From Vagococcus hydrophili (GTDB lineage: Bacteria > Bacillota > Bacilli > Lactobacillales > Vagococcaceae), in the NCBI RefSeq assembly GCF_011304195.1, contig NZ_CP049887.1:1302001-1366000 (forward strand): a DNA stretch of 64,000 nt. Direction: 5' to 3'. Positions within the stretch are counted from its first letter, which is position 1, and each line of letters opens with the position of its first letter. Position numbers and translations under genes: made by a program. Positions 4,567 through 56,413 of the stretch are shown in pieces. The notes beneath the pieces are model-generated. The model was not told the DNA's origin. It saw only the letters and a program-made list of their open reading frames with translations, and made no database searches.

Positions 4567-5121
4567 CTACTTAATCATTCCCCACTTTTCAGGTGGCCAG
4601 AATGAAACTTTTGCTTTTCCAATAATATTATCTTTAGGAATAAACCCAACTTCGGGATAGCGGCTATCTTTTGATACGCGGCGATTATCCCCTAAAACAA
4701 AATAAGTATTCTCAGGAACTGTTTGTTGTCCAGTCAGTTCTGACAGGGTAAAATTCGGAGTTAATGGCTCAGCGTTACCGGCATCTTTCCATTTTTGTTG
4801 GTAATCAGTTAGGTAAGGCTCATTCAAAGCTTGTCCATTAATCAGTAACTGATCCTCTTTATATTCAACCGTATCTCCTGGTAATCCAATCACACGTTTC
4901 ACATAAAAAAGGGCGGGATCATCAGGTGCTTTTAAAGGAACCACATCAAATCGTTTGATGTCTCCTAATTTATAGGCGATAGCTTTTTCTCCATCAACGA
5001 GTGTGGGCATCATAGAAAGTCCCTCTACTTTAATGGGTGAGAAGACAAAGACTCTAATCGCAACTAAAATAGCCACAAGTGAAACTAGCCAAAGTAATTC
5101 TTTTATCCAATGTTTGATCAT
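4567..5121 (-). CDS. lepB: Signal peptidase I (housekeeping)
   Basis: The 184-residue type I signal peptidase removes signal peptides from exported proteins on the outer face of the membrane. There is one N-terminal membrane anchor (about residues 9-28). The nucleophile Ser36 lies in GLSMMPT and the general base Lys75 in YVKRVIGLPGD, with a later LGDNRRVSKDSR box. All catalytic elements are intact. This makes it a useful reference for the two signal-peptidase-like proteins in the csc supercluster, which lack some of these residues. The length is normal for Gram-positive Sip proteins. The gene is transcribed alone and ends at a hairpin. Confidence 0.93.
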   Translation of the reverse strand: MIKHWIKELLWLVSLVAILVAIRVFVFSPIKVEGLSMMPTLVDGEKAIAYKLGDIKRFDVVPLKAPDDPALFYVKRVIGLPGDTVEYKEDQLLINGQALNEPYLTDYQQKWKDAGNAEPLTPNFTLSELTGQQTVPENTYFVLGDNRRVSKDSRYPEVGFIPKDNIIGKAKVSFWPPEKWGMIK

Positions 5122-35399: not shown

Positions 35400-36458
35400 G
35401 TGAGAAAAATAGAGAAATTTAGTTTGTTTATTGGTTTTATCGCATTATTTATTAGTTATCCGATATTTGCTTCTGCTGATGCTGGAGGCTTCACCAAAAA
35501 AGTACAGCATCCGGAGAATCAAATAACATCTGGAGAACCATTAAATTTAATGATGAAACCAGGTCAAAAGCAAAAAGTAAACGTTGTTTTAGAAAATCTA
35601 GGCGAAAAAGAAACGACAATCGAAGTTAAACTATCAGGGGCAAGAACAAATGGTAGTGGTGGTTTAGAATATGGACCAAATACTTTTAAAAAAGATAAAA
35701 GTATGAAATATGATTTAGCTGACCTAGTAAAAGTACCAGCTGAAGTTAAGATTCCGGGAAAAAGTAAAGAAAATCTTGTCCTAGATATTACTATGCCAGA
35801 AACTAGTTACGACGGGGTTGTGACTGGTGGTATTCAGTTAATGGAAAAAGGAAAAGACATGGGGAAAACAGAAGAAAATGGCGCACTTGTTACGAATAAA
35901 TTTGCTTTTTTATTCGGAGTGACATTACATATGACGGATAAAGAAGTGAAACCTGATTTTGATTTAAGAAGTGCTAAAGCAGGATTAGCCAATTATCGTA
36001 ATGCTGTATTTTTAGATATTGGGAGTACACAAGCCTTTTTAGCTAAGGGGATGACTCTTAATGCTGAAATTACTGAAAAAGGAAAAAAAGAAGTCTTGTA
36101 TCAAAAGAAAAGTGCCGATGTTTCTATCGCACCTAATTCATTATTATCGTTCCCAGTAACTATGGACGGAGACAGAATGAAGCCAGGTGATTTTACGGCT
36201 AATGTAGTTTTAAAAGGATATGACAAAGAGTGGAAGTGGAGCAAAAACTTCACGATTACCAAAGAAGAAGCTGACAAATTTAATCAACAAGATCCTTATC
36301 TAGTCCAAGAAAGAGGATTGAATTGGAAAATGATCGCTTTAATTGTCGGTGGCGTTATCTTATTAGTTGTGATTGTTGTGGTTATCTTAAAAGTGACGAA
36401 AAAGAAAACACCCCAAAAAGGAAAAAAAGCTAAGAAAAAATCATCAAAAGGAAAGTAA
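35400..36458 (+). CDS. DUF916/DUF3324 WxL-interacting protein (CscA-like)
   Basis: The 352-residue protein has a signal peptide, a DUF916 domain (about residues 35-155; QHPENQITSGEPLNLMMKPG), a DUF3324 domain (about 165-300), a single membrane segment (WKMIALIVGGVILLVVIVVV) and a Lys-rich cytosolic tail (KKKTPQKGKKAKKKSSKGK). DUF916 and DUF3324 regions are known to bind peptidoglycan and WxL partners, linking the wall complex to the membrane. GTG is the start. It leads an operon with the two-TM protein, a signal-peptidase-like protein and a second DUF916 protein. Confidence 0.92.
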   Translation: MRKIEKFSLFIGFIALFISYPIFASADAGGFTKKVQHPENQITSGEPLNLMMKPGQKQKVNVVLENLGEKETTIEVKLSGARTNGSGGLEYGPNTFKKDKSMKYDLADLVKVPAEVKIPGKSKENLVLDITMPETSYDGVVTGGIQLMEKGKDMGKTEENGALVTNKFAFLFGVTLHMTDKEVKPDFDLRSAKAGLANYRNAVFLDIGSTQAFLAKGMTLNAEITEKGKKEVLYQKKSADVSIAPNSLLSFPVTMDGDRMKPGDFTANVVLKGYDKEWKWSKNFTITKEEADKFNQQDPYLVQERGLNWKMIALIVGGVILLVVIVVVILKVTKKKTPQKGKKAKKKSSKGK

Positions 36459-36477: not shown

Positions 36478-37143
36478 ATGGATAAGTTTGAAATTATATT
36501 AATAGCGGGTATTGCCATTTCTATCTTACTTTTTATTTTGATGATTACTTCTATTATTCAATTTATTTTAGTAAAAAAAGAACTAAAAACCTTAGAGATT
36601 AATAAGCCAAAAGATCGCAAGAAAAGAAGAAGTTGGAAAAAACAGCGTCGCTTGCTTGAAAATAATAAATCTAAAAAGATGAGATATATCTTATTTAGTT
36701 TGTTGGGAACACTTATTATTGGTGGGGCTACAGGCTATGCCAAATACTACCAGTCAACAACAATTAGTGAGCAAGACACGGATAATATTGTTTATGGTTA
36801 TTATTTACTTGAACAATTAGAACAACAAATTAAAAATATTGGTAAAGAAGACGACAAGAAAGTATCAGATAACATCCATACGCTAGCTGTTTCAACCTCT
36901 TCATTTGCTTCAAAAAGAGGTAGTGATAGAAGTGTTGAGGAAGCACAGATTCTTCTAAATCAATACTACGCTCGGATTGGACAATTAGGTGTTAATGTAA
37001 GTTCTCAGAATTTTTCGGAATTGAAAAAAGATAAAAAGAAACAAGATGAGTATTTAGACGACATTAAAACCGTTAGAAACGCACAGAAAAAAGTAATTAC
37101 TTACTATAAAATTGACGAAGCCTCTTTGAAAGAGAAAAAATAG
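36478..37143 (+). CDS. Two-TM csc-associated protein with coiled extracellular region
   Basis: The 221-residue protein is of no family I recognise. It has a first membrane segment (residues 5-31), a very basic loop (KKRRSWKKQRRLLENNKSKK), a second segment (about 68-86) ending GGATGYAKYYQ, and a helical outer part of about 130 residues ending near a conserved YYKIDEASLKEKK. A homologue of exactly the same length, encoded at 46082-46747, has the same features (GSASGYTSYYQ, YYLLEDFDKEL, FYKVDEKSLAKE). Both lie directly between a DUF916 gene and a signal-peptidase-like gene, so the three products probably work together. Confidence 0.85.
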   Translation: MDKFEIILIAGIAISILLFILMITSIIQFILVKKELKTLEINKPKDRKKRRSWKKQRRLLENNKSKKMRYILFSLLGTLIIGGATGYAKYYQSTTISEQDTDNIVYGYYLLEQLEQQIKNIGKEDDKKVSDNIHTLAVSTSSFASKRGSDRSVEEAQILLNQYYARIGQLGVNVSSQNFSELKKDKKKQDEYLDDIKTVRNAQKKVITYYKIDEASLKEKK

Positions 37144-37161
37144 TGATAAGGATGACTAACT

Positions 37162-37851
37162 ATGAGTGAACATCATAAAAAAAGTCATAAAAGAAAAACG
37201 AATAGTAGTTCTAAAAAATCAAAAAAAAAGCATCCACAGATTAAAAAAGTAAAAAAGAAAACAAAAAGTCATAGCACTAAAAAGCATAGAAACAGTAAAA
37301 AAAGAAAAATAAAGCAAAGAAAGAGTAAGGCCATAAAAATTGTATTAGCTATATTTTGTTCTGTTTTAATTTATATTACTGCCTTTTCTGTGTTTTTTAC
37401 GCTTGGGAAAATGGATGGCTATTCGATGATATCTACATTGAATAACAAGGATGTAGTGGCGGTTAGTAGAAGGCAAAAAATAAGTAGATTTGATTTAGTC
37501 TATATGAAAAGTCCAACTAATGGTAAAGACAACTCTATTAGAAGAGTAATAGGTGTACCAGGAGATGTCATCGAGTTTAAAGGCGATGAACTATTCATTA
37601 ATGGGGAAGGAAAAGCTGAAAAGTACCTTGCCTCAAAGAAAAAGATGATGAAATCTATGGTCTTAACAGATGACTTTACACTAGAGGATATCGCAGGTAA
37701 AAAAGAAGTACCAAAAGACACTTATTTTGTCTTAGGAGATAACAGGAAAAGTGCTACAGACAGTAGGTATTATGGCTTTGTCTCAAAAAAAAATGTTATA
37801 GGTAAAGTTCAATTTCGGATTTTTCCTATTGCAAAATTTAAGGTCTTTTAA
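37162..37851 (+). CDS. Signal-peptidase-I-like protein with Lys to Arg change
   Basis: The protein has 229 residues. Residues 1-57 are an extreme Lys/Arg/Ser/His tail on the cytosolic side, then one membrane segment (59-81) and a peptidase S26-like domain. Ser88 is kept in DGYSMISTL. The position of the catalytic Lys is Arg127 (NSIRRVIGVPGD) in an ungapped alignment with lepB of this window (YVKRVIGLPGD). The LGDNRKSATDSR box (191-202) is intact. The Lys is the general base in type I signal peptidases and its replacement inactivates studied enzymes, so activity is doubtful. Co-location with DUF916 genes suggests a binding role for WxL precursors or complexes. Confidence 0.88.
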   Translation: MSEHHKKSHKRKTNSSSKKSKKKHPQIKKVKKKTKSHSTKKHRNSKKRKIKQRKSKAIKIVLAIFCSVLIYITAFSVFFTLGKMDGYSMISTLNNKDVVAVSRRQKISRFDLVYMKSPTNGKDNSIRRVIGVPGDVIEFKGDELFINGEGKAEKYLASKKKMMKSMVLTDDFTLEDIAGKKEVPKDTYFVLGDNRKSATDSRYYGFVSKKNVIGKVQFRIFPIAKFKVF

Positions 37852-42640: not shown

Positions 42641-42732
42641 CGTTTCTGTCATTGTAATTAAATGTGCAAAAGGTGTTGGAATGATGACAAAGACATGATT
42701 CATCCTTGTTGTATGTAGGTGGGAGGTAAATA

Positions 42733-43065
42733 GTGAGAGTGAAAAGAAAAATGGCGATTGTTGGTACGATATTATTAAGTTGTTTGATGATTTTTACCCT
42801 AAATAGCAAGCAAGTTTTTGCTAGCGACAATGGTGGTGGCAGTATCACAACACCAGGGAAAATCACCTTCGAAGTAGAAAAAACTGAACCATCTAAAGAA
42901 AAAGAGAAGGATGAACCAAAAATATTGCCGAAAACATTCGCAAAAATGTTACCTAAAACGGGAGAAAGTACTTCTCCTCTAGGTAGTTTGATGGGTGTCA
43001 TGTTGATAGGTGGAAGTTTAGTCTATCTTGCTAAAAAAAGAAAACAGGGCGGTGAGCAATCGTGA
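42733..43065 (+). CDS. Small LPXTG wall-anchored protein (CscD-like, block 2)
   Basis: The 110-residue precursor has a signal peptide (AIVGTILLSCLMIFTLNSKQ), a short Gly/Lys/Glu-rich mature part and LPKTGE with a membrane segment and a KKRKQGG tail. It is the counterpart of the block 1 protein at 33278-33610, with the same length and position between the large adhesin and the first WxL gene. GTG is the start, with GGGAGG upstream. The stop overlaps the start of the next gene (GTGA). Confidence 0.87.
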   Translation: MRVKRKMAIVGTILLSCLMIFTLNSKQVFASDNGGGSITTPGKITFEVEKTEPSKEKEKDEPKILPKTFAKMLPKTGESTSPLGSLMGVMLIGGSLVYLAKKRKQGGEQS

Positions 43066-43850
43066 AAAAAAAGGTAATGATTGTCCCACTTGCTATGCTT
43101 CTGTCACTAGGAGTAACTGCAACATCTGTTTCTGCTGATGGTGGAACAGACGCAGTAACTGATGGTCGAGTAACAGTGGAAGATTCTGGAAAAACGGGAA
43201 TCGTTGATCCGGAGAATCCTGATAAGTTAGTTGATCCTGGGGAACTGAGAGCGACAGAAGGTTCTTTAAGATTTGATTATGTTTCAGCTCTTGATTTTGG
43301 AAAAGTGAAGATTGGACCGAAAAATCGTGAATTCGATAGCTTGGCTCAAAACTTCATGAATAAAGAAACAGATGCGAGAGGATTCTTTCTTCAAATATCT
43401 GATTTCAGAGAGAAAAAAAGTGGTTGGACATTACAAGTCAAACAAGAAGAACAATTCAAAACACCTGAATATGATGAGTTAACGGGTGGTGTACTATCCT
43501 TTGATAATGGTTGGGCAAACAACCAATCTAAAAAAGGCACACCAACGGTAACAAGAAACACCATCAAAATCAACAACATTGGGGAGAGTTACGACGTTGC
43601 CAGTGCAGCAACAGGTGAGGGAACAGGTATCTGGTCCATTGCCTTTGGTGCATCTGATAAAAATAGCAACAATCAGAAAGCAACGTTAAAAGCTGAAAAG
43701 GATGACAAAGGAAAACCGCTGATGGATGCGACGTATAATAAGCCGGTCTATCGTAACAGCGCAGTATCACTATCCATCCCCGAATCAACAAATGTTTTAC
43801 CCAAGGAATACCAAACGAAAATCACTTGGATTCTTGGCGAATTACCATAA
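43062..43850 (+). CDS. WxL-domain cell-wall protein (csc block 2)
   Basis: The 262-residue protein has a signal peptide (MIVPLAMLLSLGVTATSVSA), a VDPENPDKLVDPG linker shared with its block 1 relative and a WxL domain with KSGWTLQVKQEEQF and the terminal KITWILGELP. GTG is the start and overlaps the LPXTG stop. Like other WxL proteins it should sit on peptidoglycan and contact the DUF916 protein. It belongs to the same orthologous group as 33603-34415: both have SLRFDYVSAL/LLRFDMIPAF and SFDNGW/SFDKQW elements at matching places. Confidence 0.9.
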   Translation: MKKKVMIVPLAMLLSLGVTATSVSADGGTDAVTDGRVTVEDSGKTGIVDPENPDKLVDPGELRATEGSLRFDYVSALDFGKVKIGPKNREFDSLAQNFMNKETDARGFFLQISDFREKKSGWTLQVKQEEQFKTPEYDELTGGVLSFDNGWANNQSKKGTPTVTRNTIKINNIGESYDVASAATGEGTGIWSIAFGASDKNSNNQKATLKAEKDDKGKPLMDATYNKPVYRNSAVSLSIPESTNVLPKEYQTKITWILGELP

Positions 43851-43927
43851 ACCTGTTTTAACAATCTGACTCGAAAAGTTTAGATTTTAAAAAATAAAAA
43901 GAACATATTTATAGGAGGAAGAAAATA

Positions 43928-44809
43928 ATGAAATTATCAACAAAAAGCGCAGCAGCATTAATCGCATTATTAGCAGCATCAACAGTTGGAGGAGTTTACG
44001 TATCAGCTGACGAGGCATCAGAAGCGGCAGAAGCAGAAGCAGCAAAAACAATCAAATCAGACGGAAGAGTAGAAATTGGTAATGCAAAAGATACTGGTGA
44101 TGACCTTAAAAAAACTCTTGACCCTGAAACTAGTGGTTACTTAGTACAACCAGGAAAAACTAATGGATTAGATCAAATGGTTGTTAATACTAAAAAAGGT
44201 CCAATGAAAATTGAACGTGTACCAAACTTTGATTTTGGAAAAATTGAACCACAAGCCAATGATGTTTTCCAATATGCAAAAGATTATGATTACAAAAAAA
44301 ATGTAGCAGCTAAAGATCAACCAGAAGATCTTAAAGATGTAAAACGTGGCGCTATTATCCAATTTGCAGACGTACGTAATGATCAATTTGGTTATACAGT
44401 TAAAGCAAGCATGTCAGAACAATTTAAAAATGCTGAAAACAAAATGTTAGCTGGATCTACAATCTTACTTAATCATGGTATTATGAAAGCAGAAGATACT
44501 AATGAAAATAAAGTACCTACAACCTTCAAAACTGGTGATTTAAAATTAGTTGAAGGTACAGATGGATTAAATGGTGCAGCAGTTGAAGTTGTGACTGCAG
44601 CAGCTACTGAAGGTAAAGGTCGTTTTGTAGTTGAATACGGACAAAGTGGAACGTTTGATAAAACTGATAAATTTGCAGGGATTGGTGCTGATGAAAAAGA
44701 TTCAGCAGATAAATCTGTCCAATTAATGATTCCTAACAAAACAGCTTCAAACATGGCTAAAGGTAACTACACAGCTAAAATCACTTGGACTATTGGAGCA
44801 ACTGAATAA
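43928..44809 (+). CDS. WxL-domain protein with Tyr in the first WxL site
   Basis: The 293-residue protein has a signal peptide (AAALIALLAASTVGGVYVSA), an Ala/Glu-rich mature N terminus (ASEAAEAEAAKTIKS) and a WxL domain. The proximal site reads FGYTVKASMSEQF, where Trp is replaced by Tyr; the distal site KITWTIGATE is normal. It takes the place of the block 1 protein at 34442-35254 but is longer. AGGAGGAAG precedes the ATG, and codon use is biased toward frequent codons, consistent with high expression. A long hairpin ends the transcript. Confidence 0.9.
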   Translation: MKLSTKSAAALIALLAASTVGGVYVSADEASEAAEAEAAKTIKSDGRVEIGNAKDTGDDLKKTLDPETSGYLVQPGKTNGLDQMVVNTKKGPMKIERVPNFDFGKIEPQANDVFQYAKDYDYKKNVAAKDQPEDLKDVKRGAIIQFADVRNDQFGYTVKASMSEQFKNAENKMLAGSTILLNHGIMKAEDTNENKVPTTFKTGDLKLVEGTDGLNGAAVEVVTAAATEGKGRFVVEYGQSGTFDKTDKFAGIGADEKDSADKSVQLMIPNKTASNMAKGNYTAKITWTIGATE

Positions 44810-44836
44810 TATTTAATTATTCAACCGAGAGTAATT

Positions 44837-44890
44837 AAAATTAGTAAGTTATGTCGTTATTTATAACGCATAACTTACTAATTTGTTTTT
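44837..44890 (+). terminator. Terminator between WxL and DUF916 genes (block 2)
   Basis: AAATTAGTAAGTTATG pairs with CATAACTTACTAATTT and an inner CGTTAT/ATAACG extends the stem; T-rich sequence follows. It matches the location of the block 1 terminator. Confidence 0.85.
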
Positions 44891-44930
44891 ATAAAGGTAT
44901 ATTTTCTGTGAAAAATATACGGATAACTTA

Positions 44931-44939
44931 TGTTATAAT
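44931..44939 (+). promoter_or_regulatory. Extended -10 promoter of the block 2 DUF916 operon
   Basis: TGTTATAAT fits an extended -10 element (TGnTATAAT). No good -35 box is present at 17 bases. The start codon follows after about 30 bases. Confidence 0.55.
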
Positions 44940-44967
44940 AGTAAGAAAGACTTGAAGAGGTAGAAAA

Positions 44968-46050
44968 ATGATCAATAAACCAAAAAAATCCATCGTAGTA
45001 ATGATAGTTTCATTTTTGTTATGTGTGTTTTTTATCAGTAGTCCCAAACAAGCCTTCGCACAAGGAAAAACGGGATTTACTTATAACGTAGAATTTCCAG
45101 AGAATCAAATGCGTAAAGATGTGGGGTTCTTTCATTTAAAAATGAAACCTAGTCAAAAACAAACTTTAGTTATCAAAATGGGAAATGTGAGTACAGAAAA
45201 AACGACGGTCAATATTTCCTTAAATGGAGCTAAAACCAATACAAACGGGGTTATCGAATACGGTAACAACAGTATTAAAAATGATAAATCTTTAAAGTAT
45301 GATTTTAAAGATGTGGTCAAAGGTCCTGATAAAGTTGAATTAAAACCAGGTGAAGAAAAAAACGTTGAGTTTAAAATAGCTATGCCTGAAACAAGTTATG
45401 AAGGTGTTATCTCTGGTGGGATTCAAATGATTGAAGCCGGTCAAGGTGAAGATCAGAAAAAAGCCGGCGGTTCAGTTGTTATTAACGAATATGCCTATGT
45501 GGTTGGGTTACAACTTCAAGAAGAAGATAAAGTGGTTGTCCCTGAGTTAAAACTAAATAGTGTGAAACCAGGACAATCTAACTTTAAAAACACGATTTTT
45601 GTAAACTATTCAAACGTCAAAGCGGCCTACTTGAATAATATGACCACAGAAGTTCAAATTGCTGAAAAAGGCAAAGACACAGTTATCTTTGAAAAGAAAC
45701 AAGCTAAAATGCGTATGGCACCGAATACCATGATTGATTTTCCAATTGACATGAACGGGGAAGCCATGAAAGCGGGCGATTACACCGCCAAAATTTTAGT
45801 CACAGCAGATAATGATATCAGAGAAGAATGGACCAAAGATTTCAAAATCACACAAGAAGACGCAGATAAATTTAACGAGCGTGATGTCGGTTTAGTTCAA
45901 GAAAAAGGATTGAACTGGAAGATGATTATCCTCATCGTTGTTGGCTTCTTTGTAGTTGTTGTTCTAATCTTTATTGCAGTGCATCTTCTTAGAAAAAATA
46001 ATAAGAAATCAAAATCAAGTAAGAAAAAATCAAAAAGTAAAAAGAAGTAA
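44968..46050 (+). CDS. DUF916/DUF3324 WxL-interacting protein (block 2)
   Basis: This 360-residue protein has a signal peptide, DUF916 (VEFPENQMRKDVGFFHLKMK, KTNTNGVIEYGNNSIKND), DUF3324 with the MRMAPNTMIDFPIDM strand, a membrane segment (MIILIVVGFFVVVVLIFIAV) and a Lys/Ser tail (KNNKKSKSSKKKSKSKKK). It is the counterpart of 35400-36458, sharing the sequence around VQEKGLNWKMI/VQERGLNWKMI just before the membrane. It should anchor the WxL layer of block 2 to the membrane. Confidence 0.92.
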   Translation: MINKPKKSIVVMIVSFLLCVFFISSPKQAFAQGKTGFTYNVEFPENQMRKDVGFFHLKMKPSQKQTLVIKMGNVSTEKTTVNISLNGAKTNTNGVIEYGNNSIKNDKSLKYDFKDVVKGPDKVELKPGEEKNVEFKIAMPETSYEGVISGGIQMIEAGQGEDQKKAGGSVVINEYAYVVGLQLQEEDKVVVPELKLNSVKPGQSNFKNTIFVNYSNVKAAYLNNMTTEVQIAEKGKDTVIFEKKQAKMRMAPNTMIDFPIDMNGEAMKAGDYTAKILVTADNDIREEWTKDFKITQEDADKFNERDVGLVQEKGLNWKMIILIVVGFFVVVVLIFIAVHLLRKNNKKSKSSKKKSKSKKK

Positions 46051-46081
46051 CTAGATAGAGTATGTGATAGGGGTAAATAGA

Positions 46082-46747
46082 ATGACAAATTTAGAATGGA
46101 TCTTTTTAATAACTTTCATTGGTGCGCTGATAACTTTATTATCATCGGTGACATTTCTTGCTTTGTTTGTGGTATATAAGAAAAAGTATAAACACCTTGC
46201 ATCAGAAAAAGTAAAAAGTAAATCCAAGAAAAGAGCAAGAAGAAAAGAATTAAAGCAGTTAGCAAAAGTGAAGAAAAGAAGTTTGATTGCTTTTATCACG
46301 TTCTTTATCCTAGCTTTAGGATTAGGCTCAGCGTCAGGCTATACCTCTTATTACCAAGCGGTCAATCTAAGTGATAAAGATAGTAAATCAGTGGTTTCTG
46401 CCTATTATTTATTAGAAGATTTTGATAAAGAACTTCAAAAGGCAGAAAAAGCAGAGAATAAAGAAAAAAGTGTTGATAATATTAGAAGTTTATCTGGTAA
46501 AATGGCGAGTTACGGTGTCTTAAAAGCCAGTCACCTTAACAAAGAAGAGGGACAAATCGTTCTTAACCGCTACTATAATGTGGTGAAAGAGTTAGGTGTC
46601 AATGGTAGCTCTCAAGCAAGTGAAATCGTTGAAAATAAAGAGATGTTGGAAACTTTCAGAAAAGATATTAAGAAGGCTAAAACCTATCAGGCGGAAGTCT
46701 TTAAATTCTACAAAGTGGACGAAAAATCTTTAGCCAAGGAAGTCTAA
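46082..46747 (+). CDS. Two-TM csc-associated protein (block 2 homologue)
   Basis: The 221-residue protein equals its block 1 homologue (36478-37143) in length and plan: first membrane segment, basic loop (KSKSKKRARRKELKQLAKVKK), second segment ending GSASGYTSYYQ, and an outer helical region with SVVSAYYLLEDFDKEL, QIVLNRYYNVVKELGVN and FYKVDEKSLAKE. ATG 46082 is chosen because AGGGG precedes it and it makes the lengths equal; a GTG at 46064 is in frame. It has no recognised domain. The constant linkage to a DUF916 gene and a signal-peptidase-like gene is the only clue to function. Confidence 0.85.
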   Translation: MTNLEWIFLITFIGALITLLSSVTFLALFVVYKKKYKHLASEKVKSKSKKRARRKELKQLAKVKKRSLIAFITFFILALGLGSASGYTSYYQAVNLSDKDSKSVVSAYYLLEDFDKELQKAEKAENKEKSVDNIRSLSGKMASYGVLKASHLNKEEGQIVLNRYYNVVKELGVNGSSQASEIVENKEMLETFRKDIKKAKTYQAEVFKFYKVDEKSLAKEV

Positions 46748-46763
46748 CAGTAGGGTTGATCCT

Positions 46764-47399
46764 ATGAAAAAAAAGAAGAAACAAAACCAGAAAAAGAAGA
46801 GCCATAAAAGAGTAGTCCATTCTAAAGGAAAGAAACGTAAAAAACGCAAGAAAAAGAATTCACGTGTGACTCTGGTGATAAAAGAATTGGCAATTTCTTT
46901 AATCGTAGGGACGCTTATTGGAGCCATGATATTCTTTTATGTTTATTCCTTCCAACGGATGACAGGAAACGGAATGGCACCAGTGATTGAGAAGAATGAC
47001 ATGCTTCTAGTGAATAAACGATTCAAAGAACTCAATCGATTTGATGTTGTCTTTTTAGAAGGTAGTAACAAAGACGGTGCTGTTCGTGTGATTGGCTTAC
47101 CTGGTGAGAGTGTTCGCTATAAGGAAGATTATCTTTATGTGAACGAACAACCAGTGGACGAAAAATTTTTAATCAAGACAATCAATACATATAATAAAGA
47201 TGGAAAAACATTTACTGAAGGAGAATCAAGTGATCAGCTCCTTCAAGTGGATAAGATACCAAAAGGCTATTATTTTGTCTTAGGGGATAATCGTCCTCAT
47301 GCGACAGATAGTCGGTATTATGGATTGGTGAGTAAGGATGATATCAAAGGAAAAGTTCCGATGACCTTACTGCCGATTAAGAGAATTGATCATTATTAA
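46764..47399 (+). CDS. Catalytically dead signal-peptidase-I homologue
   Basis: The 211-residue protein begins with a polybasic tail (residues 1-34), one membrane segment (38-62) and a peptidase S26-like domain. The usual Ser site GxSMxP reads GNGMAP, so Gly70 replaces the nucleophile. The Lys site reads DGAVRVIGLPGE, so Val107 stands where lepB has Lys75. Fold elements are kept: RFDVVFLEG, VIGLPGE and LGDNRPHATDSRYYG (173-187). With both catalytic residues gone it cannot be a signal peptidase of the known type. It may recognise signal peptides or exported segments without cutting them, for example as a holdase, inhibitor or scaffold of the csc machinery. Confidence 0.9.
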   Translation: MKKKKKQNQKKKSHKRVVHSKGKKRKKRKKKNSRVTLVIKELAISLIVGTLIGAMIFFYVYSFQRMTGNGMAPVIEKNDMLLVNKRFKELNRFDVVFLEGSNKDGAVRVIGLPGESVRYKEDYLYVNEQPVDEKFLIKTINTYNKDGKTFTEGESSDQLLQVDKIPKGYYFVLGDNRPHATDSRYYGLVSKDDIKGKVPMTLLPIKRIDHY

Positions 47400-47404
47400 G
47401 AGAG

Positions 47405-47441
47405 AATCATGTTAACGAAATTTGTTAACATGATTTTTTTG
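47405..47441 (+). terminator. Terminator of the block 2 DUF916 operon
   Basis: AATCATGTTAAC pairs with GTTAACATGATT around GAAATTT; a T-tract follows. Confidence 0.92.
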
Positions 47442-47621
47442 TTTTTTTAACGTTCATATACTCCTCTTATTAAAATACAAAAAGCTATAATTCATTGAAT
47501 TAAACTTATATTTTGTATATACTTAACTGATAAGCAAAATCAGTATATATAGTACTGTGTTGTACTAAAATATATATGTTAAAAATGATAATTGCATTAA
47601 AAATATAAGGAGAAGATGAGA

Positions 47622-50462
47622 ATGAAGAAACAACCAACTTTTTTATTGGTTCTGATTGCCCTATTTTCCATACTTATAATCACGATTAAGCCAGAGTGTA
47701 CAGAAGCAGCGAATTATACAGCCTACTCTGAATCTGATTTGAAAAGGTATTTAGAATTACCCACTAGCGATACAGTTACATTAGGTGGACCAATTAGTTT
47801 AAATAGTAGAATTACGGTGAAATCAAATAAAGTATTGGATTTGAATAAGCAGGTGCTTACTGCAAATGAATCGTCATTTAGTAGGTCAGGCGGCTTTAAT
47901 TTAACAAATACAACAGGTTTTACTAATTTTACAATCAAAAATGGACTTGTTACAGGAGGTCCAACTGAAGGTTTAGATGCAAAATTACAAGGGTTAATTT
48001 TTGCGGATGCTAGTGCGTATAATCTAACGGTTACGGCAGAAAATATGAAACATGATGGACCAGGATTTTTCTATGGTCGAAGCAGCGATATAGTCTTTAA
48101 AGGAAAAATAGATTTGCAGAACGAAGTGTTCAATGCACGGGCCTTAAATATGACAATGTATGGTAACCCACTTAATCCTAATGACGCCAATAACACTGAT
48201 TTTTATGGTTATGTGGATGCTCCAGGTAGTGCTAATCCAGGTGCAACGGGAAAAGGAGGAGTAAATCTTTCTTTTGATGGATACAAAATTAATTCTGCTA
48301 GAAGCATAGGTAAGCCTACTAAAAATTTATATGTTTCTAAAAATGCAAAAGTTGAGTTAAAAAATGATAAACCAGATAAAGACTTAATTTATAGAAATAA
48401 TGTAGGGAACTTTGCTGAGATGCGCATAGATGGAGAATTTATTGCTGAAGCGCAAGGGTCGTCTTTGAGAACAACCTCAGCATTTGATAGAAATGAAGTA
48501 GGGACTAAATCAGATCAATCAGAGATTAACGTAAATCCTGGTTCGATTTTTAAGATTTCAACAGTTAATGAGAAAAATACCCATGGAGTTGTTTATACTT
48601 ATAATGTGGATATCAATGTAAATAATGCAGAAGTATTTGATATTCGAAATTTTGGTAGTGGCGTTTTTTTTCATGGGTGGAATAATAGACCGTACAATAA
48701 TTTTAGGATATACAATAGCGATATAGGCGTTTGGACAGAGAGTTCTAAAGGAATTGGTAATCCGTTATATTTATGGCAAGATGTAAAATTTACAACTATT
48801 CTTGATTTTCACTATAAAATGAAAGGGAATAAGTTAACTGACAAAGTATCCTCAAGTAATCCAGATATTCCAGATAAATTTAACATCAATGAATTCAGCC
48901 GTATCTCAAACGATGTTGCCTTACCTCGTATCATTCCTGATAAAAAAACAGTAGGAAACAACGAGAAAAGTATTAGTGGTGGCACCAAATATGTTTTACC
49001 AGATGGACGAGTGATTGATAAACCAGCTGCCAATGCTAAAGTTACTTTAAAGATTGATGGTGGCGGAATATATAATACAACAACGGATGCTAATGGAAAG
49101 TGGTCACTTAATAATTTAGATTTAACAAGTGTTAAAGGCGGTTCTACTGGAACCTTTACAATGGTTGATGCCGATCAAAGGTACGGAGATGCTGCTTATA
49201 TTACAATTGAAGATAGAATTCCTCCAAAAGTAGTACCTAAGCTAGTTAAAGAAAAGTTAAATATTTTTGATAATTTAAAAACAGTAACCAATGCATTAGC
49301 TTCATATTCAGACGAAACCAGTACTAAGTTTGATATCCAATTTCTGACTAGTCAAAAAGAACGTGAAGAGATGGTTAAAGCAGTCGGTAAATACGATGTA
49401 AAAGTTAAAGTGACAGATGAAGCAGGCAATTCAACAACTGTAACTGCGCCTGTTATTGTATATGAACCGACCAATCCACCAACGACAAATGGTTTTGCAT
49501 CTGGAAAAGACTTCGAAGTTGACTATGATAAATGGACGAAGGGAACAGACGCTGAGAAACGTCAAATTATGATTGATGAAAAGTATGGTGCTACGAAAGG
49601 ATATGAAATTTCTGGTGATAAAGTCACTGAAGTAACGGATAATCCAGATAAAATGACTATCGATTTTTCTGGTCATAAGTGGGAACCTAAGAAAACATAT
49701 CCGATTACAGTGAAAGTAGGGACATTTAAAACAACAATTAATGTGAAGCTTGTTCCAGCTGCTGTAAAGATGAATGTAAAACAAGTGTATAAGGGAACGG
49801 ATAAACCAATCTTTACTAATCTATCCGAGGATAAGCCGATTGATAATTCAAAAGAAATTGAAGTTAAAATTGGAGACTCGTTAGAAACAATTGTTGATGA
49901 GATGATCAAATCTGGGAAATTTCAATTGAATTATTCAGGATACAATAAAGTGAAAATAAAAGATTATAAAGTGAAAATTAATAATCAACTAATTGAAACA
50001 GATAAAGTTCCTGATCAAGGGTTTCAATTAATTTATGAATATGAAGGTCAAATGAAATTTGCTAAGGCTCCTACTCTTGACTTTGGTAACGTCGAAATCA
50101 GTAGTAAAGATAAAATAAGTAAGTTATCGAGTGAATCTCAGGATGAAGTGTCAATTATTAACACATTTTTAGATTATGGTTGGACACTGAAGGCATCTTT
50201 ACCTAAAGGGATTACTAATAAACAAACAGGTGAAGAGTTCTTAGGGCAACTTCTCTATTTTGATAATGACGGAGAGAAACATGCGATTACTGATTCGGGT
50301 GCTAATTTGACTTCTCAGAAGAAGACCGATAAATCATTAAGTACCATTGATATTCGAGGGAATCAAAATTCAGGTATGCGTTTAGAACAGCATATAGGTA
50401 ATACCAAGGATGAGTATAGTGGTGAACTTATTTGGAGTCTAGAAGATGGACCAAAAGAGTAA
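47622..50462 (+). CDS. WxL adhesin of about 950 residues, paralogue 1
   Basis: The 946-residue protein has a signal peptide (FLLVLIALFSILIITIKPEC), a parallel beta-helix-like N-terminal half with the shared opening NYTAYSESDLKRYLELPTSD, a carboxypeptidase-like or Ig segment (KVTLKIDGGGIYNTTTDANG), a DUF5011-type segment (EMVKAVGKYDVKVKVTDEAG), a distal linker and a C-terminal WxL domain (DYGWTLKASLPKGI, ELIWSLEDGPKE). ATG 47622 is better spaced from AAGGAG than ATG 47616. The next gene encodes a close paralogue in the same order of domains. It is transcribed alone, with a terminator behind it. Confidence 0.88.
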   Translation: MKKQPTFLLVLIALFSILIITIKPECTEAANYTAYSESDLKRYLELPTSDTVTLGGPISLNSRITVKSNKVLDLNKQVLTANESSFSRSGGFNLTNTTGFTNFTIKNGLVTGGPTEGLDAKLQGLIFADASAYNLTVTAENMKHDGPGFFYGRSSDIVFKGKIDLQNEVFNARALNMTMYGNPLNPNDANNTDFYGYVDAPGSANPGATGKGGVNLSFDGYKINSARSIGKPTKNLYVSKNAKVELKNDKPDKDLIYRNNVGNFAEMRIDGEFIAEAQGSSLRTTSAFDRNEVGTKSDQSEINVNPGSIFKISTVNEKNTHGVVYTYNVDINVNNAEVFDIRNFGSGVFFHGWNNRPYNNFRIYNSDIGVWTESSKGIGNPLYLWQDVKFTTILDFHYKMKGNKLTDKVSSSNPDIPDKFNINEFSRISNDVALPRIIPDKKTVGNNEKSISGGTKYVLPDGRVIDKPAANAKVTLKIDGGGIYNTTTDANGKWSLNNLDLTSVKGGSTGTFTMVDADQRYGDAAYITIEDRIPPKVVPKLVKEKLNIFDNLKTVTNALASYSDETSTKFDIQFLTSQKEREEMVKAVGKYDVKVKVTDEAGNSTTVTAPVIVYEPTNPPTTNGFASGKDFEVDYDKWTKGTDAEKRQIMIDEKYGATKGYEISGDKVTEVTDNPDKMTIDFSGHKWEPKKTYPITVKVGTFKTTINVKLVPAAVKMNVKQVYKGTDKPIFTNLSEDKPIDNSKEIEVKIGDSLETIVDEMIKSGKFQLNYSGYNKVKIKDYKVKINNQLIETDKVPDQGFQLIYEYEGQMKFAKAPTLDFGNVEISSKDKISKLSSESQDEVSIINTFLDYGWTLKASLPKGITNKQTGEEFLGQLLYFDNDGEKHAITDSGANLTSQKKTDKSLSTIDIRGNQNSGMRLEQHIGNTKDEYSGELIWSLEDGPKE

Positions 50463-50714: not shown

Positions 50715-53558
50715 ATGCGTATAAATGCTAAACGTGGCTTTATATTGTGTGCTTTTTTTTCTTTACTAATTATTATAGGGCTTCCAACAAGTACAAAAGC
50801 TGCCAATTATACAGCTTACAATGAGACTCAGTTAAAACAGTATTTAGAGTTACCAAGCAGTGACACAGTCACATTAGGTAGTACGATAATTTTAAACAGT
50901 CGAATTACGATAAAAGCAAATAAGGTTCTAGATTTGAATAATCAAATTCTTCTGGCAAAAACAGGAGCTTTCGCTAGCTCAGGAGGATTTAATTTAACAA
51001 ACACACAAAATTTCACAGATTTTACGATTAAAAATGGTTCTATTCAAGGAGGACCAACGAATGGCTTAGGCGCTGATTCTAGCAATGCCGGTGTCATTTT
51101 TGCTGAAGATAAAGCCTATAATTTAAAAGTAACTGCGGAAAATATCCGGCATGATGGTGATGGCTTTTTTAAAGGTCATAGTACAGATTTAATTTTTAAG
51201 GGAAAGATGTATCTTCAAAATACTAAATTTAATGCAAGGGCTCTAAATATAACAATGTTTGGGAATCCTTTTAATGAAAATGATCCTGGAAATGTTGATT
51301 TTTATGGATATGTAGACTTTGAAGGTACAACAGATCCTTGGGCAATTGGGCAAGGTGGAGTCAACTTAAGTTTTGATGGTTATGACCATAATAACGCTAC
51401 AGCAATAGGCAAAACAACTAAAAATTTAGAAGTTCCAAAGAATGCTAAAGTAAAGTTAGTTAATAAACAAAAAAAGTATAATTTGGAGTACTCTAATAAT
51501 GTTGGTAATTTTGCTCAAATTAACGTAGATGGTGAATTTATAGCAGAAGCAGAAGGAACACCACTTAGAACAACAGCGGCTAGATATAACAATCAAGTGG
51601 GAACACCAAGCGATCAATCTGAAGTAAATGTTAAACCAGGTTCAATTTTTAAAATTTCTTCTTTTGATGTGAATTCTACTTATGGAACGATTTACACATA
51701 TTCAGTGGATATTAATGTTAATAATCCAAAAATTTTTGATATTCGAGCTTTTGGTAATGGTCGTTTTTTCCATGGTTGGCCTGAGCGAAATAAAAATAAT
51801 TTTAGGATTTACAATTCAGATGTAGGTGTTTGGGCTAAAAAAGAAAAAGGAATTGGAAACCCACTCTATTTATGGCAAAATGTAAAATTAATAGAAATTC
51901 TAAAATTTGATAATGGTGATAGTCAAGCAAGTTTACTAAAAAAAACAACAACTAACCCAGCAGAAATCGCGCCTAAGTTCTATATCAACGATTTCAGCCG
52001 TATCTCAAACGACGTTGCCCTACCTCAAATCGTTCCGGATAAAAAGGTAGTGGGAAACAACGAAACGAGTATCAGCGGTCGAACTGAGTATGTGTTACCT
52101 GATGGGACAGTAGTCGATAAAGTTGCAGCAGGAGCAAAAATGACCATGATTGTTGGTGGTAAAGACTACACAACAACAGCAGATCAGAACGGTAAATGGA
52201 GCTTTAATAATTTACCTCTCTCAACAGTTAGTGGTGGCTCAACGGCTACAATTACCTTAGTTGATGCAGATAAACGTTACGGTAATCCAGCCTATGTGGT
52301 GTTAGAAGATAAAACGCCGCCTAAAGCTGAACCAAAATTAATTAAAGCTAAGCTAAATGATATGAACAATTTAAATGATCCAAAGTTATCACTTGTTGAT
52401 TATTCAGATGAAACGACAGCAAAAAGTCTCTTGAAAGTTGAGTATGTCACAACCTTAGAAGAACGCCAAAAAATGCTTAAAGAAGTTGGGAAATATGATG
52501 TAAAAATTAAGGTGACGGATGCTGCAGGGAACTTCACGATTGTTGATGCTCCTGTCATTGTCCATAACCCAACAGAAGTCATTACAAATGGCTTTGCATC
52601 TGCTAAGGATTTTGAAATAGATTATGATAAATGGGTATCAGCAACAGACGCTCAGAAACGCAGCATTATGTTGTCAGAAGAATACGGGAACTTAAAAGGG
52701 TATGAAATTCAAGGAAACACAGTAACGGATGTCTCAAATATCTTAGCAAAAATGACCATCGATTTTTCTGGTCGCACATGGGAACCTAAGAAAACTTATC
52801 CGATTCAAGTAAAAGTCATGTCATATACAAAAACAGTGAATGTCACGCTAATTCCTGCAGCTGTGAAAATGAACGTTAAGCAGATTTACTCAGGAACAGA
52901 CAAACCAATTTATCAAGATTTATCTGCTAATCAACCAGTGGACAATGGGAAAGAATACGAAGTGAAAATTGGTGATTCTCTAGAAGAGGTTGTGAATAAT
53001 CTAATTGCAACCGGAAAAATTAAATTAAATTATGCAGGTTATAATCAAGTGAGCGTGAAAGACTTTGTTGTTAAAGTGAATAATAATGTGGTTGCGACAA
53101 CGAAAGTACCAGATCAAGCCTTTCAATTGATTTATCAATATCAAGGTCAGATGAAATTTGATAAAGCACCAGATCTTAATTTTGGTAAAATTGAAGTGAG
53201 TAAAGATGATCAAATTAGCAAGTTAGCAACGACGTCTCAAGATCAAGTGTCCATCATTAATACCTTCTTAGATTATGGTTGGACCCTAAAAGCGTCACTA
53301 CCAAAAGGAATTACGAACAAACAATCTGGGGAAGAGTTCTTAGGTGAGTTACTTTATATCGACAGTGCGGGTGTCAGACATTCGATTAATAAGTCGGGTG
53401 CTGAATTAATTTCTCAAAAATCAACGGACAAATCTTTAAGTACGATTGATATTAGAGGAAACCAAACCTCAGGAATGCGCTTAGAACAACACATAGGGAA
53501 CACAAGAAACGACTACAGCGGAGAATTAGTCTGGACATTAGAAGACGGTCCAAAATAA
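50715..53558 (+). CDS. WxL adhesin of about 950 residues, paralogue 2
   Basis: This 947-residue protein repeats the plan of paralogue 1: signal peptide, NYTAYNETQLKQYLELPSSD opening, beta-helix region, FSRISNDVALPQIVPDKKVV hinge (nearly the same in paralogue 1), Ig and DUF5011-like segments, and the WxL C terminus (DYGWTLKASLPKGI, ELVWTLEDGPK). The C-terminal 150 residues are far more alike between the paralogues than the N-terminal halves, as expected if the wall-binding end is fixed and the tip varies. AAGGAAGGGGAG precedes the ATG. A palindromic repeat and a bidirectional terminator follow. Confidence 0.9.
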   Translation: MRINAKRGFILCAFFSLLIIIGLPTSTKAANYTAYNETQLKQYLELPSSDTVTLGSTIILNSRITIKANKVLDLNNQILLAKTGAFASSGGFNLTNTQNFTDFTIKNGSIQGGPTNGLGADSSNAGVIFAEDKAYNLKVTAENIRHDGDGFFKGHSTDLIFKGKMYLQNTKFNARALNITMFGNPFNENDPGNVDFYGYVDFEGTTDPWAIGQGGVNLSFDGYDHNNATAIGKTTKNLEVPKNAKVKLVNKQKKYNLEYSNNVGNFAQINVDGEFIAEAEGTPLRTTAARYNNQVGTPSDQSEVNVKPGSIFKISSFDVNSTYGTIYTYSVDINVNNPKIFDIRAFGNGRFFHGWPERNKNNFRIYNSDVGVWAKKEKGIGNPLYLWQNVKLIEILKFDNGDSQASLLKKTTTNPAEIAPKFYINDFSRISNDVALPQIVPDKKVVGNNETSISGRTEYVLPDGTVVDKVAAGAKMTMIVGGKDYTTTADQNGKWSFNNLPLSTVSGGSTATITLVDADKRYGNPAYVVLEDKTPPKAEPKLIKAKLNDMNNLNDPKLSLVDYSDETTAKSLLKVEYVTTLEERQKMLKEVGKYDVKIKVTDAAGNFTIVDAPVIVHNPTEVITNGFASAKDFEIDYDKWVSATDAQKRSIMLSEEYGNLKGYEIQGNTVTDVSNILAKMTIDFSGRTWEPKKTYPIQVKVMSYTKTVNVTLIPAAVKMNVKQIYSGTDKPIYQDLSANQPVDNGKEYEVKIGDSLEEVVNNLIATGKIKLNYAGYNQVSVKDFVVKVNNNVVATTKVPDQAFQLIYQYQGQMKFDKAPDLNFGKIEVSKDDQISKLATTSQDQVSIINTFLDYGWTLKASLPKGITNKQSGEEFLGELLYIDSAGVRHSINKSGAELISQKSTDKSLSTIDIRGNQTSGMRLEQHIGNTRNDYSGELVWTLEDGPK

Positions 53559-55723: not shown

Positions 55724-56413
55724 GTGGACTTTACTAAGAAGGGAAGCCGTGATTTTATTTTGAAAATAAAAAAAATAGGAAAAGAACTTGCGATAATAGT
55801 TGTTTTAGCTGTTATCTGGGGTGTGTACTACTATCAAGCTTATCCAATTTTTGCGGAAGTTACTGATTTAATAACACCAGGTAGTTCTTATATCGTGAAA
55901 ATTTTAGAGTTTACAAATTACAGAGCAGAGCAATTATCCTTTATATTAATTGAATTCTTCTTATTAACATCAATTAGTAGTATTTTATCTCTATATATTT
56001 ATAAAACAATAGAGTATACTAAAAATAAAGTGTTATTGGGTCTTATTGTCATTAATATTGTGTTTGTCGGGATCATCTGTGTGATAGCTAATATATTTTG
56101 GTCTGTTTATTTGATACTAACAGTTTTATCTTTACTCATTATTGCAGCGTCAGTTTATGTATCCAGTGTTCTTTTTGGATCAGCTGTAAAATTTGATGAA
56201 GGTGAAGTTGTTTATACGAGTAAAGCTTTTGAAACAGAAGATCTTGCTCAAGACAGTTTAAATAACCGAATAAATCAGTTAGATAAGAAAGCTAAGTCGA
56301 AGTTGGACGGTGAGGTTTTCGAAGATAATAAACAATATTTTTTTGAAATATATGCCAATGACAGAATAATTCTAGATAATAAAGGAGAATTTAACTTTCA
56401 TGAAAAAATTTAA
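55724..56413 (+). CDS. Four-TM csc-linked membrane protein, unknown family
   Basis: The 229-residue protein has hydrophobic segments at about residues 21-46, 68-92, 103-125 and 127-153, then a cytosolic or outer polar domain of about 75 residues (KFDEGEVVYTSKAFETEDLA; YFFEIYANDRIILDNKGEFN). The start is uncertain: GTG 55724 has no clear ribosome binding site, while TTG 55760 follows AAGGGAAG at 13 bases. The stop overlaps the start of the DUF916 gene by 14 bases, so the two are coupled. I do not recognise a family. It stands where blocks 1 and 2 have no gene. Confidence 0.75.
   Translation: MDFTKKGSRDFILKIKKIGKELAIIVVLAVIWGVYYYQAYPIFAEVTDLITPGSSYIVKILEFTNYRAEQLSFILIEFFLLTSISSILSLYIYKTIEYTKNKVLLGLIVINIVFVGIICVIANIFWSVYLILTVLSLLIIAASVYVSSVLFGSAVKFDEGEVVYTSKAFETEDLAQDSLNNRINQLDKKAKSKLDGEVFEDNKQYFFEIYANDRIILDNKGEFNFHEKI

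What the first reader, a model, noticed from the sequence alone, without database searches (positions are those of the whole stretch)
46764..47399. Signal-peptidase homologue without nucleophile or general base inside a WxL cluster
Against the intact lepB of this same window (Ser36 in GLSMMP, Lys75 in YVKRVIGLPGD), this protein has Gly70 in GNGMAP and Val107 in GAVRVIGLPGE. The rest of the fold is retained, including VIGLPGE and LGDNRPHATDSR, so it is not a decayed gene. It also carries a 34-residue polybasic cytosolic tail. The natural inference is a pseudo-enzyme that binds exported WxL, DUF916 or LPXTG precursors, or regulates the true signal peptidase. I know of no described role for such a protein.
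Basis: partly seen in the sequence, partly recalled or inferred. Interest (0 to 1): 0.85.

Follow-up and report, generated by a model that had tools for sequence, protein, structure and literature searches.

The report
Dead signal peptidase of WxL clusters
In Vagococcus-like bacteria and enterococci, a signal-peptide-cutting enzyme seems to have become a conserved non-cutting protein that travels with a set of cell-surface proteins, and in many enterococcal loci it sits directly in front of an intact copy of the enzyme.

Summary
Window 46764-47399 encodes an S26 (signal peptidase I) protein with Gly70 and Val107 in place of the catalytic Ser and Lys, and Ala180 where the enzymes keep a helper Ser. 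It closes a DUF916 / two-TM / S26 gene run in a WxL cluster. It is not an oddity of this genome. I used the two-TM gene as a bait that does not depend on the S26 residues. Of 80 distinct S26 proteins encoded right behind it, one keeps Ser and Lys, and that one has Ser at a Gly kept in most others. Lys is lost in 77 of 80 (Arg in 73), Ser in 38 of 80. The class is under purifying selection (median dN/dS 0.135, 43 usable of 75 overlapping pairs); for the target itself this could not be measured. In Enterococcaceae a second S26 often follows at once and keeps Ser and Lys in 41 of 41. A described role for a dead S26 exists: SipA/LepA in streptococcal pilus assembly. This lineage scores closer to active enzymes than to SipA. 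Best reading: a non-proteolytic, peptide-binding assembly factor for WxL-cluster proteins. New variant of a known kind; mechanism inferred.

The parts
46764..47399 (+). Pseudo-signal peptidase (S26), 211 aa; Gly70, Val107, Ala180 at the Ser90, Lys145, Ser278 positions (E. coli numbering)
46764..46865 (+). Polybasic cytosolic tail, residues 1-34 (21 Lys/Arg, no acid)
   Evidence: sequence; class trait
46971..46973 (+). Codon gga, Gly70 at the nucleophile position
   Evidence: alignment
47082..47084 (+). Codon gtt, Val107 at the general-base position (Arg in 73 of 80 bait-found S26)
47301..47303 (+). Codon gcg, Ala180 at the Ser278 position
46064..46747 (+). Two-TM partner gene (start as listed, GTG; relatives align from Met7): basic loop between the TM helices, helical bundle after them; no Pfam match over its cut-off
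44968..46050 (+). DUF916/DUF3324 protein (WxLIP), polybasic C-terminal tail
43928..44809 (+). Small WxL-type protein of the same cluster
   Evidence: motif by eye
43062..43850 (+). Small WxL-type protein of the same cluster
   Evidence: motif by eye
42733..43065 (+). Short LPXTG protein (EF2685/EF0750 family) of the same cluster
47400..47440 (+). Terminator-like hairpin and T run behind the gene (4 such sites found in 42500-47700, 2.5 expected by chance)
37162..37851 (+). Second pseudo-S26 of the window (Ser kept, Lys to Arg), same gene order
36478..37143 (+). Two-TM partner of the second pseudo-S26
35400..36458 (+). DUF916 gene upstream of the second pair
4567..5121 (-). Intact lepB used for comparison (Ser36, Lys75)

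Best explanation
Shown: the gene belongs to one clade of S26 proteins, selectively maintained as a class, that have lost the Ser/Lys dyad. Members are encoded directly behind a two-TM membrane protein, which nearly always follows the DUF916 (WxLIP) gene of a WxL cluster. Inferred: the protein sits in the membrane with its basic tail inside and its S26 domain outside. It does not cut. It keeps the signal-peptidase fold and so probably the peptide cleft, and uses it, together with the two-TM protein and WxLIP, to hold the exported N- or C-terminal ends of WxL-cluster proteins (WxL, WxLIP, small LPXTG) while they are assembled on the surface. That is how SipA is proposed to work in pilus assembly. 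Cleavage itself is left to the intact S26 enzymes, either the one next door (many enterococcal loci) or the housekeeping ones (this genome). The target is one of the most altered members.
For: Dyad table: 80 bait-found S26 genes, 1 with Ser and Lys, and that one has Ser at the Gly272 position, where any side chain is said to clash with the catalytic Lys (PMC4049620 section 8). Gene order: of 79 two-TM genes in L062-L141, 76 have DUF916 directly upstream and 67 are followed by an S26. One clade: 79 altered first-position proteins plus that Ser/Lys one stand apart from housekeeping and second-position S26 (SH-aLRT 97, quick tree). Asp280 and Arg282 are invariant in 107 of 107 and the Ser site stays small (S/G/A) in 104 of 107, as for a kept cleft. 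Class dN/dS median 0.135. Model of the target: pLDDT 85.1; best solved folds are SpsB with bound peptide (4wvi, Z 14.3, rmsd 2.7, 130 aligned) and then SipA (4n31, Z 12.8, rmsd 2.9, 126 aligned). Precedent: SipA/LepA.
Against: No binding or phenotype data exist here. SipA itself showed no binding to pilin, peptides or sortase in vitro (PMC4049620 section 12 part 1), so the precedent's mechanism is also unproved. Of 21 two-TM genes in the own family 7, and of 61 in f3 loci 5, have no S26 behind them, so the S26 is not always needed. No sortase lies in the window; the five found in the genome are elsewhere, unlike SipA pilus operons. The target departs from class features (Val for Arg; Asn69 and His179 for aromatics), so class constraint may not fully carry over to it. 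Cleft retention rests on fold and conserved motifs, not on coordinates, which I could not read.
Confidence: 0.5

Rival explanations
1. Pseudo-subunit of a two-part signal peptidase: the dead S26 pairs with an intact S26 (the tandem one, or a housekeeping one) and steers or restrains its cutting of WxL-cluster pre-proteins.
For: 41 distinct intact S26 sit directly behind a first-position one and 41 of 41 keep Ser and Lys; 20 of 61 two-TM genes in f3 loci and 20 of 36 in named loci have the pair; the intact partners group together, apart from housekeeping S26 (SH-aLRT 96, 23 rows). SpsA/SpsB of S. aureus is a known dead/active set (PMC12445088 and PMC2721850 passages).
Against: 0 of 21 two-TM genes in the window's own family have the intact partner beside it. 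Tandem genes may simply be two parts of one pathway. No interaction data; complexes could not be predicted here.
Confidence: 0.22
2. The class is functional but this copy is drifting: Gly/Val/Ala plus loss of the class's own features mark relaxed constraint in the window's lineage.
For: The target lacks the class Arg and both aromatics (Asn69, Val107, His179). Its near kin in the own family also vary at these sites. The genome holds a paralogue with Ser/Arg in a similar cluster. dN/dS of the target is unmeasured.
Against: Open frame, neighbours in the usual order, hairpin behind it; core motifs kept; nearest relative 48.5% identical over 200 aligned residues; a confident S26 model.
Confidence: 0.17
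3. Still a peptidase: Arg replaces Lys as base in the class, or another residue serves, and the target uses a different route.
For: Ser is kept in 58 of 107 and Arg in 100 of 107; 68 of 68 members tested match NCBIfam's signal peptidase I model at E <= 1e-5.
Against: Ser lost in 49 of 107 with Arg still there in 44 of those 49; the fewest changes of the Ser state on the tree of 100 are 19; the target has neither Ser nor Lys nor Ser278.
Confidence: 0.04
4. Shield or decoy: it binds signal peptides and delays their removal so that cluster proteins stay membrane-tethered until assembly.
For: Same cleft argument as the best explanation; signal peptides in the cluster look cleavable by ordinary peptidase (read by eye).
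Against: No direct evidence; hard to separate from a scaffold without kinetics.
Confidence: 0.07

Closest known systems
SipA/LepA of streptococcal pilus operons (S. pyogenes FCT-2/3/4; homologues in S. agalactiae PI-2b and S. pneumoniae PI-2)
   Same: S26 fold without Ser/Lys (Asp48/Gly85 in S. pyogenes), in an operon for a surface structure, no peptidase activity seen, required for assembly (PMC4049620 abstract, section 8, section 12 part 1; PMC7900414 passages). Model of the target matches 4n31 at Z 12.8, rmsd 2.9, 126 aligned.
   Different: Sequence is closer to active enzymes: class profile scores 171.6 bits on a Bacillus SPase I (4nv4) and 52.2 on SipA. Different dead residues, no sortase in the window, regular two-TM and DUF916 neighbours, long polybasic tail, intact S26 next door in many relatives.
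SpsA of Staphylococcus aureus
   Same: Dead S26 paralogue of an active one (SpsB) in one genome (PMC12445088 and PMC2721850 passages).
   Different: Dispensable. That it lies outside WxL clusters, that its function is unknown and that spsA lies directly upstream of spsB are recalled, not checked.
Signal peptidase I (SpsB, LepB, S26)
   Same: Fold, motifs C to E, Asp280 and Arg282 equivalents.
   Different: No nucleophile, no general base, no Ser278 in the target.
Csc/WxL clusters (CscA-D; WxL, WxLIP, LPXTG)
   Same: DUF916, WxL and short LPXTG genes as described (PMC1534035 passages; PMC10599100 and PMC9772566 passages).
   Different: In the main text of the two later papers 'peptidase' occurs zero times; the 2006 paper names signal peptidase I only as the processing enzyme in the passages shown. 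The two-TM gene and the dead S26 are additional members in Vagococcaceae and Enterococcaceae.

Membership tests
Peptidase S26 / signal peptidase I fold family | Family profile match | tested here: met
   PF10502 119.5 bits (cut-off 22.9); TIGR02227 129.9 (cut-off 47)
Peptidase S26 / signal peptidase I fold family | Fold | tested here: met
   SpsB 4wvi Z 14.3, rmsd 2.7, 130 aligned
Active signal peptidase I | Ser nucleophile and Lys general base | tested here: not met
   Gly70 and Val107; also Ala180 for Ser278
Active signal peptidase I | Cleaves signal peptides | not testable with these tools
   needs assay
SipA/LepA pilus assembly factor | Dead S26 encoded in a surface-protein operon | tested here: met
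SipA/LepA pilus assembly factor | Closest sequence kinship to SipA among S26 | tested here: not met
   active enzymes score above SipA for the target and for the class profile; no tree with SipA was made
SipA/LepA pilus assembly factor | Operon holds a sortase | tested here: not met
   no PF04203 match in the window at E <= 0.001; five in the genome at other places. Pilins were not sought
SpsA | Dead S26 orthologous to S. aureus SpsA | not tested
   no SpsA sequence was compared
WxL cluster component | Conserved place next to DUF916/WxL genes | tested here: met
   65 of 67 two-TM/S26 runs in L062-L141 have DUF916 directly upstream
WxL cluster component | Physical or functional link to WxL proteins | not testable with these tools
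   complex prediction and assays not available

The most novel reading that the evidence does not exclude
These clusters encode a bacterial signal peptidase complex with a pseudo-subunit. A dead S26, in Enterococcaceae with its old active site rebuilt around a fixed Arg and two aromatics (63 of 66 there, 0 of 91 intact S26; columns chosen after the fact), forms a unit with a two-TM helical protein and often a dedicated intact S26. The unit receives WxL-cluster pre-proteins and couples their cleavage to surface assembly. The window's copy would be a variant that works with housekeeping peptidase only.
Probability: 0.2. Interest if true: 0.82.

Novelty: new variant of a known kind. Interest (0 to 1): 0.62.

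Why it matters
The curated model that names signal peptidase I matches 68 of 68 class members tested (E <= 1e-5; 68 of the 80 were given), so annotation by that model would hide a class of pseudo-enzymes in enterococcal and vagococcal genomes, often several per genome. If they act as assembly factors, they extend the SipA case from pili to WxL complexes and give many natural dead/intact pairs in which to ask what a signal peptidase fold does without cutting. How SipA works is still open (PMC7900414 passages); this set makes the question easier to test.

Tried and rejected
Plasmid search for closer relatives: 143 records, all under 60% identity, 20 listed; the two opened were ordinary lepB loci, so no help for dN/dS. 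Direct dN/dS of the target: dS not computable (saturated) against the three nearest relatives tried, so only the class was measured; its 75 pairs share sequences and 32 were outside the usable range. Reading the Arg-plus-aromatics signature as a feature of the target: rejected, the target lacks it and only 2 of 14 own-family members have it. SipA orthology: rejected by scores. Known fold for the two-TM protein: Foldseek gave no PDB match at E <= 0.001. Paper PMC13104630 looked relevant by counts, but the passages shown held signal-peptide names such as SPSasD and not SpsA.

Bias to note: the named-genome scan used two patterns, one of which excludes Lys at the base position, so its 27 additional first-position proteins (0 with Lys) are kept apart; the bait-found count is 80. 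The regions (80 in all) were picked by hand from the places listed; for own-family loci I had already seen the S26 residues, for the rest not; one (L082) held no two-TM gene, and many listed places were not fetched. First-position means within 400 nt behind a two-TM gene on the same strand; L182 (Gly/Arg, farther away) fell outside and was counted as other. Sets were made distinct by identical sequence only; near-copies remain. The class 'second' (45) included four genes outside WxL clusters; the WxL figure is 41. In the dN/dS yardstick one of the six usable second-position pairs is outside WxL clusters (L199, 0.501). The careful tree holds only first-position rows (100 of 107, those under 93% alike) and 10 second-position rows, and its bootstrap had not settled; kinship to housekeeping S26 comes from the quick tree, whose columns included the dyad. 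The signature columns were picked from the most divergent columns, on the same data.

Full report
What is there. The ORF at 46764-47399 is complete (211 aa). It starts 16 nt after a two-TM gene (46064-46747 as listed), which starts 13 nt after a DUF916/DUF3324 gene (44968-46050; Pfam WxLIP domains). Upstream lie two small WxL-type genes (by eye) and a short LPXTG gene. A terminator-like hairpin follows at 47400-47440. The protein is an S26 member by profile. Its model (pLDDT 85.1) resembles S. aureus SpsB (Z 14.3, rmsd 2.7, 130 aligned) and S. pyogenes SipA (Z 12.8, rmsd 2.9, 126 aligned). At the catalytic centre it has Gly70, Val107 and Ala180 in place of Ser, Lys and the Lys-supporting Ser.

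The genome. Eight S26 matches are found. Four keep Ser and Lys. The other four do not: the target (Gly/Val), window 37162-37851 (Ser/Arg), one in a further WxL cluster at L009:15475-16074 (Ser/Arg), and one away from DUF916 and two-TM genes at L009:7955-8752 (Ser/Leu). Three of these four follow DUF916 and two-TM genes in the same order.

Survey. I used the two-TM protein as bait, since it says nothing about the S26 residues. It was found in 10 of 29 genomes of the family, 35 of 395 sampled from the order and 6 of 398 sampled from the class, all in two families. In genus g25 of f3, 15 of 20 genomes show seven copies, the most that the search scored. From fetched loci, 80 distinct S26 proteins lie directly behind it: Ser/Arg 40, Gly/Arg 24, Ala/Arg 7, Met/Arg 2, Ala/Lys 2, and one each of Ser/Phe, Gly/Val (target), Arg/Leu, Gly/Leu and Ser/Lys. 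The one Ser/Lys (L016) reads VLSDNR, where the other 106 first-position proteins have Gly (104) or Ala (2) before Asp. A motif scan of named genomes (one of two patterns biased against Lys) added 27 more, all Arg, which makes 107. Named hosts include E. plantarum, E. moraviensis, E. ureasiticus, E. crotali, E. larvae, E. caccae, E. termitis and V. allomyrinae.

The intact neighbour. In L062-L141, 79 two-TM genes were seen; 67 are followed by an S26 and 20 of those by a second S26. In own-family loci the figures are 21, 14 and 0; in f3 loci, 61, 56 and 20; in named loci, 36, 35 and 20. The second gene keeps Ser and Lys in 41 of 41. In a tree with housekeeping S26 included, first-position proteins form one group (80 rows, SH-aLRT 97) and second-position ones another (23 rows, 96).

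How it evolved. On a tree of 100 first-position and 10 second-position proteins made without the dyad columns, the Lys column needs 6 changes and the Ser state at least 19 among the first-position rows (fewest changes on that one tree, root not inferred). I read this as early loss of the base and repeated later loss of the nucleophile, as expected once catalysis is gone. The Ser site stays small (S, G or A in 104 of 107) and Arg stays in 44 of 49 that lost Ser, so the site seems still constrained for some other reason. An aromatic residue next to the Ser site, the Arg, and an aromatic in GDNRx[YF] occur together in 65 of the 80 bait-found proteins: 2 of 14 in the own family and so 63 of 66 in Enterococcaceae, against 0 of 91 intact S26. 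These columns were picked after the fact. The target has none of the three. dN/dS between close first-position pairs is 0.135 at the median (43 of 75 pairs usable, maximum 0.252), against 0.174 for second-position pairs (6 of 10 usable, one of them outside WxL clusters). For the target itself dS is saturated.

Mechanism. Fold, motifs and small Ser site argue for a kept peptide cleft; the dyad loss argues against cutting. The basic tail is a class trait: median net charge +23 in first-position genes, +12 in the second group, +2 in others (tails delimited by a rough rule). The two-TM protein has a basic loop between its helices and a confident helical bundle after them (pLDDT 94.4), and the DUF916 protein ends in a basic tail. 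By the positive-inside rule all three membrane proteins of the unit would expose strong positive charge to the cytosol, which could gather them at one site; this is inference. I therefore favour a non-cutting, peptide-binding assembly factor. The pseudo-subunit of a two-part peptidase is the main rival: it fits the tandem pairs but not the own family, where no pair is seen. Drift of this copy is also open.

Known things. SpsA is a dead S26 paralogue of active SpsB in S. aureus. Phage 186 CI, in the related LexA family, has Arg at the base position, contacting a main-chain oxygen (PMC12984324 passages), a possible structural reason for Arg. I saw no paper on dead S26 in WxL clusters in the listings of my searches for WxL with signal peptidase (1 paper; 10), WxL or WxLIP (40 listed of 464) and inactive or odd signal peptidases (0; 1; 19 listed of 21). 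Of the WxL papers I looked into passages of five (PMC1534035, PMC10599100, PMC9772566, PMC6152273, PMC8262879); the library holds open-licence papers only.

Noticed in passing
window 37162-37851: A second pseudo-S26 (Ser kept, Lys to Arg) in the neighbouring WxL cluster, with the same DUF916/two-TM/S26 order and another DUF916 gene behind it.
   Followed up: yes
L009:7955-8752 (own genome): A fourth odd S26 (Ser kept, Lys to Leu, long basic tail) away from any two-TM/DUF916 run, on a very long branch of the tree; its context was not studied.
   Followed up: partly
window 59456-62304: A large WxL-type gene appears split into two frames (59456-60541 and 60514-62304), similar in sequence by eye to the unbroken 47616-50462 and 50715-53558; a frameshift or sequencing error near 60510-60545.
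   Followed up: partly
L210:8373-9056 and L219:8490-9068 (Ktedonobacter): S26 proteins with Gln at the Lys position lie under 1 kb downstream of an intact S26, a possible separate pseudo/active pair in Chloroflexota.
   Followed up: no
L199 (MAG, Candidatus Bathyoplasma): Four S26 genes with Ser and Lys in direct tandem.
   Followed up: no
L016:2149-2733: Only first-position S26 with Ser and Lys, but the Gly before Asp-Asn-Arg is Ser; it may be dead by another route.
   Followed up: partly
window 55724-56413: A further membrane-type protein of unknown family between a WxL-type and a DUF916 gene; no Pfam match over a cut-off and no NCBIfam match.
   Followed up: no
G000:C1:1565513-1565794: A short two-TM relative (about 100 aa open frame) in the same genome, perhaps a remnant.
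   Followed up: no
L182:6926-7534 (Enterococcus rivorum): A Gly/Arg S26 about 3.5 kb away from its two-TM/DUF916 genes, an unusual split of the unit.
   Followed up: no
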